Source: an uncultured Poribacteria bacterium | GTDB taxonomy: Bacteria; Poribacteria; WGA-4E; WGA-3G | Assembly (NCBI GenBank): GCA_951828385.1 | Contig: OX639973.1 | Span: 3,835,200-3,899,199, forward strand | Reading direction: 5' to 3' | Length of the DNA stretch: 64,000 bases | In this document: piece by piece, positions 9,082 through 45,363 of the stretch | How positions within the stretch are numbered: position 1 is the first letter of the stretch | Layout: every line of letters starts with the position of its first letter | Notes under the pieces: generated by a model | What the model was told of the DNA's origin: nothing | The model's database searches: none | The model's input: the letters and a program-made list of their open reading frames with translations, nothing else | Made by a program: the position numbers and the translations under genes

Positions 9082-9238
9082 TTGTCTTATTCCTTATTTA
9101 TCAGATTGGTCCTTGGGTTTGCTCATTAGCTTCACCTTAAGTTTGGGTTTTTGATTGGTTTAAATTTTGCTTCGGTACCATGATAATCAATTCCTTCTTC
9201 TATTCAACCATATTTACAGAACTTTCTTCAATTTTTTG

Positions 9239-9288
9239 TTGCAATCAGATAGATTGTTTGTTATAATGCTTTATAATGATTAATCATT
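9239..9288 (+). promoter_or_regulatory. Sigma70 promoter with a 14-bp palindromic operator for the R-M gene
   Basis: TTGCAA (9239-9244), a 17-bp spacer and TATAAT (9262-9267) form a near-consensus promoter. A perfect palindrome AATGATTAATCATT sits at 9275-9288, on the expected transcription start. The downstream protein begins with a MerR-like helix-turn-helix, so self-repression at this site is a reasonable guess. Confidence 0.65.
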
Positions 9289-9314
9289 GTAAAACATTAA
9301 CAGGAGATTCCACT

Positions 9315-11642
9315 ATGAACACCAAACCCGATTATCTTACAATTAAGGATGCCGCCGAATTATTAGGTGTAACCCCAACAACCCTTCGCAATTGGGATAA
9401 ATCCAAAAAACTTGTTGCTCATCGTAACCCTGTAAATGGCTACCGATTATACGATGTTGAAGATGTGACAAAAATCTTGCGCGATAGAGGTGAAAACGAT
9501 CAGGCATATAACTTGGACGTTGTTTCTGATCAAACTGATGCCCAAATCTTTTTATTTCCAGATTTATTTTCTCAATCAGAGTCAAAACAGGACACTCGGA
9601 CACTCAGGTTGTTAGTCCGACAAATGAGCAAAGCTTTTCGTGATTCAATGGGGGGTGGTTTGCTTGAACGTTTTGAAGAAATATCAAAGGTACTATACTG
9701 CAAACTCTATGACGAACGGCAATGCAGAACCAACGATAACTACACGAAGCAGTTCTATTTTTCATCTGAGGCACCTTTAAATGAAACCTACCAAAGAATA
9801 GCGACACTTTATGAAAAGGCCATAAGTCTTTTACCCTATATCTTCACAAATTCTCAGCGTAAACTAAGTAATGACCAAAAAGCAATCGTCCGAATCGTTG
9901 AGCTTCTGCAGCCGGTCAGTTTGAGTAATATCCCTGCAGATATAAAAGGGACAGTATATGAAGAGTTAGTTCGGAATACATTTGAGAAGTCAGATAACCA
10001 ACAGTTTTTTACACCACGTCAAGTCGCAGAATTTATGGTGCGTTTCACCAATCCTCAATTGGATCAAACTTTATGTGATCCTGCTTGTGGTAGTGGTGGC
10101 TTTCTAATAGAAGCCTCAAAGCACATTGGACGTGTTTTATTCTCACAAGGAGAGGGAGAATTTTCGGCAAACCGAATTGCTCAGTATCTATCAAATCACA
10201 TTATCGGTTTAGAGATTGACAGACGAATGGCGTGGGTTGCACAAATGAATCTCATTATGCACGGTGACGGAGATGGTAACATTTATCACTTAGATGGCAA
10301 CGGTTCACTCGGTTTTTCAGACAATCTGAATCGTCTTGTCAAGTCAAATGAGTTAGATATTATTTTGACAAATCCACCATTCGGCAGTGATCTCTCAGAT
10401 AAAACGGATCTCTCCAAATATCAATTGGGCGAAGGAAAAACCTCTCGACGTAGAGGAATTCTCTTTATCGAACAGTGCATACGTTGGTTGAAGCCGGGCG
10501 GGCGTTTAGGAATTATTATTGAAGACAGTGTATTAAACGGAGCATCAAATGAAGATGTACGACGATTTGTTTTACAACATTGTGTTGTAGAAGCAGTGAT
10601 TAGCTTGCCCAATGTTACGTTCATGCCGTATTCAAGTTCAAAAACATCAATACTTTTCTTACAGAAAAAAAACAATAATCAAGAAACACAACCCCATATT
10701 TTTATGGCAAACGTGGAACAAATAGGACGAAAACAAAACGGCGATCCGCTCTATACTGGACAACGAGGCAAAGACGGTTCCCGTGAACTTTTGAGTGAAT
10801 TACCAGATGTTGTCAACGCTTGGCAAACTTACACTATAAGTGGTGTTCAATCAATAACACACTTATCACCCAAAATATTTGTATGTCCCCCTGAAAGATT
10901 TACAGACGGTATTGGGGAACGACTTGACGTTCAATTTCACCATCCTTCTCGGGCAACCGCCGAAAGGACATTAAACCGTTCAATCTATCCAACTCCTAAA
11001 CTCGCAGAACTGATTGTTGTACGTAATGGAATGGTAATACCGTCAACACAGGATCCTGATGAGATTTGGCAATATATAGGATTAGCAAACATTGTTGCGG
11101 CAACGGGCGAATATAGTGTATCCAATGTTCTTGGCCGCCAACTTAAGAGTGGGGTTCGTCGTTTTCATCCGCGAGACATTCTTTTTTCAAAACTACGCCC
11201 CGAACTTCGTAAATGTGTTTTAGTTCGGGACGACGAAGATGATGGCTATGCCTCATCGGAGTGTCTTGTTTTTCGCACATTAGAAGACGCTTTCGATGAC
11301 CCTCTCCTAAAAGATATAGCGTCGAAGAAAAAATCACTACAGCAATATCAAGTCAATAGAGAGTATCTGTCATTCATACTTCGTAGTGATATTGTATTCG
11401 GGCAACTGGTCTATCAAATTACAGGCAGTGGACGCCCAAGAGTTAACCAATCTGCGATACTTGGATTAAGAATTCCATTGCCTCCGTTACCCGTACAACT
11501 CGAAATTGTTGCCGCGTACAAAATGGCTTGGAAACATCACCTCGAGTGTCGAACCCGGAGCGAAACCGCATTACGAGAGGGAAAGGAAGCCTTAGAAGCA
11601 GCGTATCACCACGCAAACGATAGACTTTGTCCCCTGCCGTAG
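9315..11642 (+). CDS. HTH + N6-adenine DNA methyltransferase + HsdS-type specificity domain fusion
   Basis: 775 residues. The start chosen is ATG 9315, 8 nt after AGGAG; an earlier in-frame start at 9276 overlaps the palindrome. Residues 1-60 are a MerR/excisionase-like HTH (LTIKDAAELLGVTPTTLRNW, then NGYRLYDVEDV). Residues about 60-500 are a type I (HsdM-like) gamma methyltransferase with SAM motif DPACGSGGF at about 255-263 and catalytic NPPFG at about 353-357. Residues about 540-760 form a type I specificity (HsdS) target-recognition unit, with one TRD and a coiled-coil-like end. It methylates adenine in a DNA target set by its own TRD. A putative nuclease is encoded convergently next to it. 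Confidence 0.9.
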   Translation: MNTKPDYLTIKDAAELLGVTPTTLRNWDKSKKLVAHRNPVNGYRLYDVEDVTKILRDRGENDQAYNLDVVSDQTDAQIFLFPDLFSQSESKQDTRTLRLLVRQMSKAFRDSMGGGLLERFEEISKVLYCKLYDERQCRTNDNYTKQFYFSSEAPLNETYQRIATLYEKAISLLPYIFTNSQRKLSNDQKAIVRIVELLQPVSLSNIPADIKGTVYEELVRNTFEKSDNQQFFTPRQVAEFMVRFTNPQLDQTLCDPACGSGGFLIEASKHIGRVLFSQGEGEFSANRIAQYLSNHIIGLEIDRRMAWVAQMNLIMHGDGDGNIYHLDGNGSLGFSDNLNRLVKSNELDIILTNPPFGSDLSDKTDLSKYQLGEGKTSRRRGILFIEQCIRWLKPGGRLGIIIEDSVLNGASNEDVRRFVLQHCVVEAVISLPNVTFMPYSSSKTSILFLQKKNNNQETQPHIFMANVEQIGRKQNGDPLYTGQRGKDGSRELLSELPDVVNAWQTYTISGVQSITHLSPKIFVCPPERFTDGIGERLDVQFHHPSRATAERTLNRSIYPTPKLAELIVVRNGMVIPSTQDPDEIWQYIGLANIVAATGEYSVSNVLGRQLKSGVRRFHPRDILFSKLRPELRKCVLVRDDEDDGYASSECLVFRTLEDAFDDPLLKDIASKKKSLQQYQVNREYLSFILRSDIVFGQLVYQITGSGRPRVNQSAILGLRIPLPPLPVQLEIVAAYKMAWKHHLECRTRSETALREGKEALEAAYHHANDRLCPLP

Positions 11643-11674
11643 GAAATTATGTAGAATCCTTGAAAATTTCGTGA

Positions 11675-12469
11675 CTAATTTTCATCGTCTTTATTACCTA
11701 AACGATTTCTAGGCGAATGTTCATCAATTTTTTTAAGGAAATCCTCGAAAAGGCGTACTGTATCACTTAGGTTTTCAGCCTTTCGTCTTGTACTATGAAC
11801 AATACGCCAAAGTTTTCCATAGTTACCCGGATCAGGCACAAATTCCTTTTTTCTCTCGCTGTAGACAAGGACTTTCTCGCCTTCAATCTTTCCTTTTGTT
11901 ATTTTTAGTCGTACATCGCGCTCTTTAGCTATTTCACCCGCTGGCAGAATTACACCAGCAAAAATGTAAGGAAATTCGCCAATAATTCTTCCATCTTTTC
12001 CTAAGTCTGTCCATTTCCAACCAATTAACAGAAGCATATCTTTGTCAGGATCAATTGATATTGTTGGCGTACTGAAACGTGCTGCTTGCTCATCTGATTC
12101 GGCATCAACAGCTTTCATCTCGATTCTAAGTAGTGAAGTTAATGTGTCATCGCGGAAGTAGAAGTCAGGATATTCATGTGCGGTAGCGAAAGTTAATAAA
12201 TACTTACCATCATACCTCTCTTTGATGATAGCATTCATCTCGGTACTGAGAGCGTACTCAAGCATTGTCCCAATCCGAGTTCGATAGCTAGACAATTGGC
12301 GTTTATCCGTTGGCAGAGGTTCTACCTGACGGGTGCGCTTGGATAAGCGTTGAGGGCTAAAATTCGCGTTAACTCTCTGGATAGCTTTAGCCAGTAATTC
12401 ATTGAAATACTTTGAAATTTCCTCAATATCCGATTTACTTTGTGAAAGTAGTTCTGGCAGCGTGGGCAT
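11675..12469 (-). CDS. Putative PD-(D/E)xK restriction endonuclease
   Basis: 264 residues, convergent with the methyltransferase gene, 32 bp apart. The core shows a helix with Glu71 (GTMLEYALS), then PDFYFRDD (Asp102) and LLRIEMKAVD (Glu117, Lys119), which fits the PD-(D/E)xK nuclease fold. The N-terminus has a basic, Arg/Lys-rich segment that may contact DNA. Position beside a methylase-specificity fusion suggests it is the cleaving subunit of the same R-M system. It lacks helicase or translocase motifs of type I HsdR. The assignment rests on the motif and context; I do not recognise a named family. Confidence 0.65.
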   Translation of the reverse strand: MPTLPELLSQSKSDIEEISKYFNELLAKAIQRVNANFSPQRLSKRTRQVEPLPTDKRQLSSYRTRIGTMLEYALSTEMNAIIKERYDGKYLLTFATAHEYPDFYFRDDTLTSLLRIEMKAVDAESDEQAARFSTPTISIDPDKDMLLLIGWKWTDLGKDGRIIGEFPYIFAGVILPAGEIAKERDVRLKITKGKIEGEKVLVYSERKKEFVPDPGNYGKLWRIVHSTRRKAENLSDTVRLFEDFLKKIDEHSPRNRLGNKDDEN

Positions 12470-12656
12470 AAGCAGCCTTTTGATTTCTGATATAGGATAT
12501 GTGTATTGTTATGGTACTATGTGTGGTATTTGAAAGCAAGCAAAATTATCTGGGGGCAGTTTCAGGCTCACTTACTTTTTTTCTTGCACTCCGACCTTGA
12601 AGTTGCTATGATAAGTATAAACCAGCACACTCTTCTTGGCAACTTCGGAGACATGC

Positions 12657-16255: not shown

Positions 16256-16277
16256 ATGGGAAATGGAAGGTAAAATC

Positions 16278-16859
16278 ATGCCTTCTCACCGCACGCCCGG
16301 CGGTCAACGTATGTATGATTTAGCAGAACTCTTAGGTGTAAATGATTTGACCTATCCTACGATTGGTTATGCCCGCGTCTCGAGTTCGGATCAAAAGGAA
16401 GATTTAGAACGTCAGCATGCTGTCCTTGAGGCATTTTGTAATAAGAAGGGTTGGCAGACTGAAATCATAAGAGACCTCGGCAGTGGAAACCTGAATTACC
16501 ATAAGAAAGGCTTACTCCGCCTCCTTGAGTTACTGGTGCGGGGTCAAATGTCGCGTCTGGTTATCACACATAAGGACAGACTCCTTCGCTTTGGTGCAGA
16601 GATCGTTTTTCGTATCTGTGAACTCAAAGGTATAGAGGTTGTCATTATCAACAAAGGTGAGCAGCCTTCTTTAGAGGAAGAACTCACACAAGATGTCCTG
16701 GAAATCATGACTGTATTTTGTGCGAAACTCTACGGACGACGTTCTCATAAGTCAAAGAAAATGGCAGAAGAAATAGAGAAGATCGTCTCCGAAGAAAAAC
16801 AGCAATTGGAACTACATTTTGGCACTCCGCACACAGAAAATAGCACTGAATCCGAATAA
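16278..16859 (+). CDS. tnpA: IS607-family serine recombinase TnpA, short N-terminus
   Basis: 193 residues from ATG 16278 (GGAAGG 7 nt upstream); ATG 16263 is another possible start but lies at the transcription start. The catalytic domain begins IGYARVSSSDQKEDLERQ, with the nucleophilic Ser in RVSSSDQ, followed by THKDRLLRFG and a family-typical basic tail GRRSHKSKK. IS607 TnpA usually begins with a full MerR-like HTH ending RTPGGHRRY; here only the tail of it, HRTPGGQRMY, remains. This may be a natural short form or a truncation. The gene overlaps tnpB by 41 bp. Confidence 0.85.
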   Translation: MPSHRTPGGQRMYDLAELLGVNDLTYPTIGYARVSSSDQKEDLERQHAVLEAFCNKKGWQTEIIRDLGSGNLNYHKKGLLRLLELLVRGQMSRLVITHKDRLLRFGAEIVFRICELKGIEVVIINKGEQPSLEEELTQDVLEIMTVFCAKLYGRRSHKSKKMAEEIEKIVSEEKQQLELHFGTPHTENSTESE

Positions 16860-17910
16860 CAAGCAATCCACGCTTATGTCTCAGCACGCGGGTTATGCCC
16901 GTGTTGCCTTCAACTTTGGTTTGTCGTCCTTCAAAGTCGGCTTAGACCAAGACGAATGGCGAAGTCATGTTGACATAAAGCGTGAGTTTAACGCTGTCAA
17001 ATACGATAAGTTTGACTGGTGTAAAGACCTGTCGCAAAATGCGTCTAAGAATGCTATCCACAATCTTGGAGACGCTGTAACCCGTTGGAAAAAAGGACAA
17101 AACAAGTTCCCCGTCTATAAGAACCGATCTGGTAAATGCTCTTACCAAGCAGACAATGGCTACGGAACTGTTGAAGTCCATAAGAAACGTATCAACCTTC
17201 CCAAAATAGGGTGGATACGCATGCGTGAGGAACTGCGCTGGACAGGTGAAATCACCAAGGTCGTTGTGTCAAAGCACAATGACAAATGGTATGCTTCTAT
17301 CACCGTCAGACGCCTCGATAGCAACAACTACAAGCATCAGCCTGACTTGTTCACTGACAAACACCCTATCGGCATAGACGTAGGTATCAATACACTGGCG
17401 ACATGCTCTAATGGCGATACCTATGATAACCCACGCCCCCTAAAGCGATATGAACGCAAGTTAGCACGTGCGAACCGTCGGCTCTCTTGCAGGCAGAAAG
17501 GCAGTCAGAATTGGTATAAGGCAAAGCATATACTTACTTCTGTCCATGCGCGTATCGGTAATATCCGAGAAGACGCTCACCACCAAGCAACGATACAGAT
17601 TGTCCGCAAAGCCTCTGCTATCGGTATAGAGACACTGAATATCAGCGGACTACTCAAGAACCGAAAGATCGCTAAAGCCTTATCGGATTCAGCACTTGGT
17701 GGCTTTCTGTCTAAACTGAAGTATAAAGCCGATAGGCGTGGCATCCCTATAGACGAAGCGGATAGGTTCTTTGCCAGCAGTAAAACCTGTAGCAACTGCG
17801 GACACAAGAAAGCAGATTTGCTGCTTTCTCAACGCACCTATCACTGCTCCGAATGTGGCTTTGACTGCGATAGAGACCTAAACGCGGCTATCAATCTATG
17901 TCCCGCTTGA
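16819..17910 (+). CDS. tnpB: TnpB RNA-guided endonuclease (IS607-associated)
   Basis: 363 residues. RuvC-like catalytic residues are present: Asp in HPIGIDVGINTL, Glu in IGIETLNISG and Asp in DCDRDLNAAINL. The zinc finger CSNCG...CSECG lies between them near the C-terminus. This is the full catalytic set, so the protein may be active. TnpB uses an omega RNA from the 3' end of its own gene to cut DNA and promote retention of the element. The start overlaps tnpA, and upstream starts in this frame are not better supported. Confidence 0.85.
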   Translation: MALRTQKIALNPNNKQSTLMSQHAGYARVAFNFGLSSFKVGLDQDEWRSHVDIKREFNAVKYDKFDWCKDLSQNASKNAIHNLGDAVTRWKKGQNKFPVYKNRSGKCSYQADNGYGTVEVHKKRINLPKIGWIRMREELRWTGEITKVVVSKHNDKWYASITVRRLDSNNYKHQPDLFTDKHPIGIDVGINTLATCSNGDTYDNPRPLKRYERKLARANRRLSCRQKGSQNWYKAKHILTSVHARIGNIREDAHHQATIQIVRKASAIGIETLNISGLLKNRKIAKALSDSALGGFLSKLKYKADRRGIPIDEADRFFASSKTCSNCGHKKADLLLSQRTYHCSECGFDCDRDLNAAINLCPA

Positions 17911-44766: not shown

Positions 44767-44780
44767 CTATTTCCCCCTTC

Positions 44781-45363
44781 TTATACCAACGCCAGTTTGA
44801 TTAATCACTTTGGATGTGTTGCGGTTCTATTTTCGCATCACAGAGACATCAATTGTAGCACAAACTTCCCAGTTTGTGGCTTCTTATACCAACGCCAGTT
44901 TGATTAATCACTTTGGATGTGTTGCGGTTCTATTTTCGCATCACAGAGACATCAATTGTAGCACAAACTTCATAGTTTGTGGCTTCTTATACCAACGCCA
45001 GTTTGATTAATCACTTTGGATGTGTTGCGGTTCTATTTTCACATCACAGAGACATCAATTGTAGCACAAACTTCGCAGTTTGTGGCTTCTTGTACCAACG
45101 CCAGTTTGATTAATCACTTTGGATGTGTTGCGGTTCTATTTTCGCATCACAGAGACATCAATTGTAGCACAGACTTCCTTCCCAGTTTGTGGCTTCTTAT
45201 ACCAACGCCAGTTTGATTAATCACTTTGGATGTGTTGCGGTTCTATTTTCACATCACAGAGACATCAATTGTAGCACAAACTTCCCAGTTTGTGGCGTAT
45301 ATGACGTCCATTAACAGTGGACGCTACATAAGTCCAACATTTATCAAACTCACGTTATACCAA
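44781..45363. repeat. MITE family A, amplified array of five units
   Basis: Units start at 44781, 44884, 44987, 45090 and 45197 (103, 103, 103 and 107 bp). Each carries the palindrome with arms CACAAACT/AGTTTGTG. Only the last unit has the full right end (...ATCAAACTCACGT at 45354). The whole array is flanked by TTATACCAA on both sides (44781-44789 and 45355-45363), so it began as one insertion and then grew by tandem duplication. Confidence 0.85.

What the first reader, a model, noticed from the sequence alone, without database searches (positions are those of the whole stretch)
9239..12469. Compact R-M system with HTH-methylase-specificity fusion and autoregulatory operator
One protein combines a MerR-like HTH, a type I-like adenine methylase and an HsdS recognition unit; its promoter overlaps the perfect palindrome AATGATTAATCATT; and a PD-(D/E)xK nuclease gene converges 32 bp away. 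In most R-M systems the controller is a separate C protein. Here control, modification and recognition may be one polypeptide, which would time nuclease activity after entry into a new host.
Basis: partly seen in the sequence, partly recalled or inferred. Interest (0 to 1): 0.7.

Follow-up and report, generated by a model that had tools for sequence, protein, structure and literature searches.

The report
Self-regulating DrdI-like restriction-modification cassette
This is a two-gene bacterial anti-DNA defence cassette related to the known restriction system DrdI, whose protective methylase carries an extra DNA-binding head that probably switches off its own gene through an operator conserved in Poribacteria, Bacteroidota and Ignavibacteria (as half-sites in a cyanobacterium): a new combination of known parts.

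Summary
Gene 9315-11642 (+) encodes a MerR-type winged HTH, a gamma-class N6-adenine methylase and one HsdS-like target domain. A PD-(D/E)xK nuclease gene (11675-12469, -) converges on it, 32 bp away. The same order recurs at ten loci (five Poribacteria, Microcystis, Ignavibacteria, three Bacteroidota). The nuclease gene lies next to the methylase gene at all ten (dead in two, cut by a contig end in one). The closest characterised relative is DrdI (GACN6GTC): M.DrdI is 36% and R.DrdI 30% identical, and M.DrdI lacks the HTH.

The 14-bp palindrome is the centre of a larger operator, TTTTAYAAKG-N6-CMTTRTAAAA. It lies over and just downstream of the -10 box and is a 42-bp perfect palindrome in one relative. 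It precedes the methylase gene in nine of ten loci; Microcystis keeps the half-sites at wider spacing. It occurs once in the 6.66-Mb genome, and no copy precedes the nuclease gene.

Best reading: a Type II (IIP/IIH) DrdI-family system whose methylase represses its own promoter, as EcoRII, SsoII and Ecl18kI methylases do. Direct timing of the nuclease by the HTH is not supported; indirect timing through overlapping convergent transcripts is possible but untested. New variant of a known kind.

The parts
9232..9243 (.). Left border of the cassette: TTTTTTGTTGCA, direct repeat of 12577-12588; one copy at empty sites in congeners
   Evidence: read from sequence
9239..9244 (+). -35 box TTGCAA of the methylase promoter (invariant in five Poribacteria)
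9262..9267 (+). -10 box TATAAT, 17-bp spacer, TG before it
9261..9302 (.). Extended operator: four half-sites; a 42-bp perfect palindrome in relative L009/L032, with a degenerate right outer half-site here
9269..9294 (.). 26-bp core operator CTTTATAATG-ATTAAT-CATTGTAAAA (1 mismatch to TTTTAYAAKG-N6-CMTTRTAAAA); best site in the genome
9275..9288 (.).
9302..9307 (+). Ribosome-binding site AGGAGA
9315..11642 (+). HTH~gamma-MTase~TRD fusion, 775 aa
9333..9488 (+). MerR/HTH_17-type winged HTH (residues 7-58)
   Evidence: secondary structure
9939..10739 (+). N6_Mtase catalytic domain (DPACGSGG residues 255-262, TNPPFG residues 352-357)
10917..11519 (+). HsdS-like single target-recognition domain (residues 535-735)
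11487..11627 (+). Predicted long C-terminal helix (residues 725-771), likely dimerisation helix
   Evidence: low-confidence model
11675..12469 (-). PD-(D/E)xK restriction endonuclease, 264 aa, R.DrdI homologue
12113..12169 (-). Catalytic motif P101-D102 ... E117-x-K119, invariant in the eight aligned family members
12577..12588 (.). Right border of the cassette: TTTTTTCTTGCA direct repeat

Best explanation
The locus is a two-gene Type II restriction-modification cassette of the DrdI family. The 264-aa PD-(D/E)xK nuclease cuts an interrupted palindrome. The fused gamma-methylase~TRD acts as a homodimer and methylates adenine in both half-sites of the same sequence (half-site possibly GAC, as in DrdI). 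In this clade the methylase has an extra N-terminal MerR-type winged HTH. As the enzyme accumulates, its HTH pair binds the two-fold operator that covers the -10 box and start site, and so represses its own gene. Shown here by sequence: domain order, linkage to the nuclease, relationship to DrdI, conservation and uniqueness of the operator. Inferred: enzyme activities, dimer state, binding of this HTH to this operator, and the sign (repression). Any effect on nuclease timing would be indirect: overlapping convergent transcripts, or a changing methylase-to-nuclease ratio.
For: Homology to the DrdI pair on plasmid pDrdI: methylase 36% over 703 aligned columns (E 2e-139), nuclease 30% (E 2e-29), TRD 44%. 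M.DrdI makes GACNNNNNNGTC (PMC6430315) and is listed as a homodimeric M~S chain (PMC3874165). The other pDrdI N6 methylase has a truncated S gene next to it, matching the inactive type I M.DrdORFCP. Linkage: nuclease gene at all eight loci found with the methylase query, and methylase gene at all five loci found with the nuclease query in 84 Poribacteria-phylum genomes. Operator: 26-bp site with 0-1 mismatch at -20/-21 from the ATG in five Poribacteria; two tandem sites (0-3 mismatches) in Ignavibacteria and Bacteroidota; 0/300 shuffles in nine of ten; spacer 6 is the unique best or joint best spacing in nine of ten, and Microcystis keeps the half-sites at spacers 15 and 25. Only site with 2 or fewer mismatches in the 6.66-Mb genome. 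A 17-bp promoter spacer with the operator over the -10 box fits repression, not MerR-type activation through a long spacer (general knowledge of MerR activators). Precedent for HTH-methylase autorepression.
Against: No binding, methylation or cleavage data. The methylase structure model is poor (pLDDT 55). GACN6GTC is not depleted in the host genome, so specificity is not supported independently. M.DrdI itself lacks the HTH and in pDrdI the two genes are arranged differently. The Microcystis operator departs from the common spacing.
Confidence: 0.8

Rival explanations
1. Same R-M system, but the HTH helps DNA target recognition or DNA loading by the methylase, and the operator is bound by an unrelated host regulator.
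For: Binding was not tested; MerR-like HTHs also serve non-regulatory roles, for example in IS607 recombinases.
Against: The operator travels with the cassette across phyla and occurs once in the genome. M.DrdI methylates without an HTH. HTH-bearing members have the operator or its half-sites.
Confidence: 0.12
2. A timing circuit: the derepressed methylase promoter initially drives transcription through the convergent nuclease gene and blocks it; once the methylase represses itself the nuclease comes on.
For: Stop codons 35 bp or less apart, or overlapping, in all eight loci where both ends can be measured (for L015, whose frame is interrupted by one stop, the gap is about 8 bp by reading past it). 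No terminator-like site was found between the genes. Antisense control of nuclease genes is known for EcoRI and Eco29kI.
Against: No transcript data. Terminators of other types may exist. In EcoRII the fused repressor does not affect the nuclease gene.
Confidence: 0.25
3. The palindrome is an RNA hairpin in the 5' leader that controls translation.
For: It lies close to the ribosome-binding site, and a short stem can form.
Against: The -10 box lies inside the left half of the extended palindrome, so most of it is not transcribed; leader folds are no better than shuffles (z 0.03, -1.26, -0.15); in Bacteroidota the symmetry is imperfect as RNA but conserved as DNA half-sites.
Confidence: 0.03
4. 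A type I R-M remnant, or a component of BREX or MADS.
For: The methylase matches hsdM, PglX and MAD2 models.
Against: All are far below the family cut-offs (MAD2 250 of 720, hsdM 47 of 243). No HsdR or other MADS/BREX gene; the cassette holds only two genes between its borders.
Confidence: 0.02

Closest known systems
DrdI R-M system (Deinococcus wulumuqiensis NEB 479, plasmid pDrdI; GACNNNNNNGTC)
   Same: Homologous nuclease (30%) and homologous M~S fusion methylase (36%; TRD 44%), found close together
   Different: M.DrdI has no N-terminal HTH; R.DrdI is 396 aa against 264; the genes are divergent and about 2.3 kb apart with an IS4 transposase between them
HTH-methylase autorepressors: EcoRII, SsoII/Ecl18kI, ScrFI
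   Same: Methylase with N-terminal HTH, and an operator at its own promoter
   Different: SsoII is an m5C methylase, and EcoRII, Ecl18kI and ScrFI are so from my own knowledge, their HTH being of another type; here a gamma m6A M~TRD protein with a MerR-type winged HTH. Ecl18kI also affects its nuclease gene through overlapping promoters, which this gene arrangement cannot do
AhdI (Type IIH, 'Type 1 1/2')
   Same: Type II nuclease with a type I-like methylase; bipartite palindromic site
   Different: AhdI has separate M and S subunits and, from my own knowledge, a separate C protein
C-protein-controlled Type II systems (PvuII, Esp1396I)
   Same: HTH-operator autoregulation
   Different: No separate C gene in the cassette

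Membership tests
DrdI-family Type II (IIP/IIH) R-M | Nuclease homologous to R.DrdI | tested here: met
   30% identity, E 2e-29; PADLOC REase_II PDLC03462, 8e-25
DrdI-family Type II (IIP/IIH) R-M | Single-chain gamma m6A methylase fused to one TRD | tested here: met
DrdI-family Type II (IIP/IIH) R-M | Methylates and cuts GACN6GTC | not testable with these tools
   TRD 44% identical; no site depletion in the genome
HTH-methylase autorepressor (EcoRII/SsoII class) | N-terminal HTH in the methylase chain | tested here: met
HTH-methylase autorepressor (EcoRII/SsoII class) | Symmetric operator at its own promoter | tested here: met
HTH-methylase autorepressor (EcoRII/SsoII class) | Binding and repression shown | not testable with these tools
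   needs gel shift and reporter
HTH-methylase autorepressor (EcoRII/SsoII class) | m5C methylase family | tested here: not met
   N6_Mtase with TNPPFG motif; so it works like this class but is not a homologous member
C-protein R-M | Separate small HTH controller gene | tested here: not met
   only two genes between the cassette borders
Type I R-M | HsdR translocase/nuclease and two-TRD HsdS | tested here: not met
MADS | MAD2 equivalog score and neighbouring MAD genes | tested here: not met
   250 bits against cut-off 720; no other MAD gene in the cassette

The most novel reading that the evidence does not exclude
A DrdI-type methylase that is also a MerR-type repressor and forms a built-in timer with its convergent, 3'-overlapping nuclease gene: methylase transcription interferes with the nuclease until the methylase represses itself.
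Probability: 0.22. Interest if true: 0.6.

Novelty: new variant of a known kind. Interest (0 to 1): 0.42.

Why it matters
It shows that autorepression by an HTH-methylase fusion, described in the reviews read here for enzymes such as EcoRII and SsoII, probably arose separately in the type I-like adenine methylases, with another HTH type. It supplies a precise predicted operator and a small two-gene cassette for testing how R-M systems without a C protein control methylase dose and enter new hosts. It also gives smaller homologues of R.DrdI (264 against 396 aa), useful for enzyme discovery.

Tried and rejected
Site depletion: GACN6GTC, and all 64 half-sites with spacers 3-11, counted in 464 kb of the host and 400 kb of a congener without the system; GACN6GTC 72 against about 81, no signal, and the lowest motifs are also low or of mixed sign in the control. 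No GACN4-8GTC in the locus, so no sign of methylation control of the promoter under a DrdI-like specificity. Viral-contig scans with single proteins found nothing; with the alignment they found only short HTH matches, and the four tested are IS607 transposases. Nuclease against PDB sequences: nothing significant. RNA-hairpin rival rejected. A paper search for MADS MAD2 gave nothing relevant, and one combining MerR with adenine methylases gave no paper that holds the word MerR. The convergent order of the EcoRII genes, which I recall, was not confirmed in the papers searched, so I do not use it. Other N6 methylases of the host genome are unrelated at the N-terminus.

Full report
WHAT IS THERE. 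The window comes from a 6.66-Mb single-contig genome whose nearest named matches are Candidatus Poribacteria MAGs. Two convergent genes lie at 9315-11642 (+) and 11675-12469 (-), with 32 bp between their stop codons. The first product has a MerR/HTH_17 winged HTH, an N6_Mtase domain and a single HsdS-like target-recognition domain. The start is 9315, behind AGGAGA, not 9276: the earlier ATG is part of the operator, and its frame is closed by TAA in L009/L032. The second product has no Pfam or NCBIfam hit. It matches a PADLOC Type II nuclease model (8e-25), and it has an invariant E71, P101-D102 and E117-x-K119 in the eight aligned homologues. Its AlphaFold model (pLDDT 73) resembles restriction endonucleases: SwaI Z 8.7, HincII 7.1, NlaIV 6.7, EcoRV 6.7 (the Z values are moderate), with EcoRV also leading the Foldseek list.

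LINKAGE AND DISTRIBUTION. A search of 84,980 species genomes with the fusion gave eight loci: three Poribacteria, Microcystis, Ignavibacteriaceae and three Bacteroidota/Bacteroidia. All have the same domain order from the HTH on (43-94% identity), and all have the nuclease gene next to the methylase gene, on the other strand. The reverse search with the nuclease in 84 genomes of the phylum gave five loci, all with the fusion. Together with the window this makes ten distinct loci. The nuclease is dead in L009/L032 (deletion with frameshift) and interrupted by one stop in L015, and its start lies beyond the contig end in L014; the methylase frame is open in all. Loss of the nuclease before the methylase is what an R-M pair would show. 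Sampling 386 cyanobacterial and 395 Bacteroidota genomes found few further and only distant nuclease relatives, one of them beside an M~TRD gene without HTH (L034). The family is rare and patchy.

CASSETTE BORDERS. In the genus the downstream oxidoreductase gene is near universal (36 of 38 genomes). In at least a dozen of these the sequence left of 9243 is joined to the sequence right of 12577, which is the empty site. The borders carry TTTTTTGTTGCA and TTTTTTCTTGCA; empty sites have one copy. Two congeners keep only the nuclease-side leader (12465-12562, or 12472 onward), apparently scars of a lost cassette. So the unit is about 3.34 kb with exactly two genes and no C gene. The direct repeats may be a target duplication or microhomology; I did not separate these.

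RELATION TO DRDI. The best characterised relatives of both proteins lie together on Deinococcus wulumuqiensis plasmid pDrdI: methylase 36% (E 2e-139), nuclease 30% (E 2e-29). The paper on that strain assigns M.DrdI, motif GACNNNNNNGTC, to this plasmid together with an inactive type I methylase and an m5C methylase (PMC6430315). The only other N6 match on the plasmid sits beside a short S gene, so the fusion is M.DrdI by elimination; the records do not state it. M.DrdI is listed as a homodimeric M~S chain (PMC3874165). M.DrdI and L034_M have no HTH. TRD identity to M.DrdI is 44%, and 54-63% to the non-poribacterial members, so the half-site may be GAC or similar, but this is inference; genome site counts give no support either way.

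OPERATOR. In five Poribacteria the promoter TTGCAA-17-TATAAT is followed by the palindrome, and the -35 box, the -10 box and most operator positions are invariant. In L009/L032 the palindrome is 42 bp and perfect, in L010 34 bp. A common 26-bp form, TTTTAYAAKG-N6-CMTTRTAAAA, fits with 0-1 mismatch at -20/-21 in all five. It fits twice in tandem, about 35 bp apart, with 0-3 mismatches, in Ignavibacteria and Bacteroidota. No shuffle of 300 matched as well in nine of ten loci. The exception, Microcystis, has the half-sites at spacers 15 and 25, close to the 6/16/26 helical phase. The motif was derived from these loci, so the shuffle test is not independent for them, but the same geometry in separate phyla is. 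In the whole genome this is the only site with two or fewer mismatches, and the reversed control pattern finds seven with up to three. No copy lies upstream of the nuclease in the seven loci tested (7-9 mismatches).

MECHANISM. Most likely the methylase represses its own promoter: the operator covers the -10 box and start site, and the promoter spacer is a normal 17 bp, unlike the long spacers that MerR activators need (general knowledge). This is the logic of the dual-function methylase repressors EcoRII, SsoII and Ecl18kI (PMC12707154, PMC3874152). In EcoRII the nuclease gene is not affected; in Ecl18kI it is, through overlapping promoters, which this layout cannot do. Here the tail-to-tail genes, with stops 35 bp or less apart or overlapping and no terminator-like site between them, leave room for transcriptional interference, so that self-repression of the methylase would release the nuclease. 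That is untested.

NOVELTY. Each part is known; the combination of MerR-type HTH, gamma m6A methylase and TRD in one chain, with a conserved operator, was not found in the papers searched, a limited open-access library. REBASE could not be consulted. I rate it a new variant of a known kind.

Noticed in passing
16263-17910 (+): IS607-type element: serine recombinase (NF033518, 177.6 bits; match starts at profile position 21, so the HTH is incomplete) followed by a TnpB-like gene. Viral-contig matches to the methylase HTH that I tested are IS607 transposases, so the HTH might derive from such an element; this is only a lead.
   Followed up: partly
44777-45296: Five tandem copies of a 103-bp unit, 95% matching, each holding TGATTAATCA, the inner part of the operator palindrome.
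   Followed up: partly
L037-L056 (host genome sample) and L057-L076 (congener): GACGTC is strongly under-represented: 6 against about 85 expected in the host sample, 19 against about 79 in the congener.
   Followed up: no
L032 (7300-7420) and L015 (3552-4334): Nuclease gene disrupted while the methylase frame stays open: candidate orphan methylases.
   Followed up: yes
L081 and L082: Remnants of the nuclease leader at the cassette site without either gene: scars of a lost cassette.
   Followed up: partly
G000:C1, loci L002-L008: At least seven other type I-like N6 methylase genes in the same genome, a large R-M repertoire.
   Followed up: no
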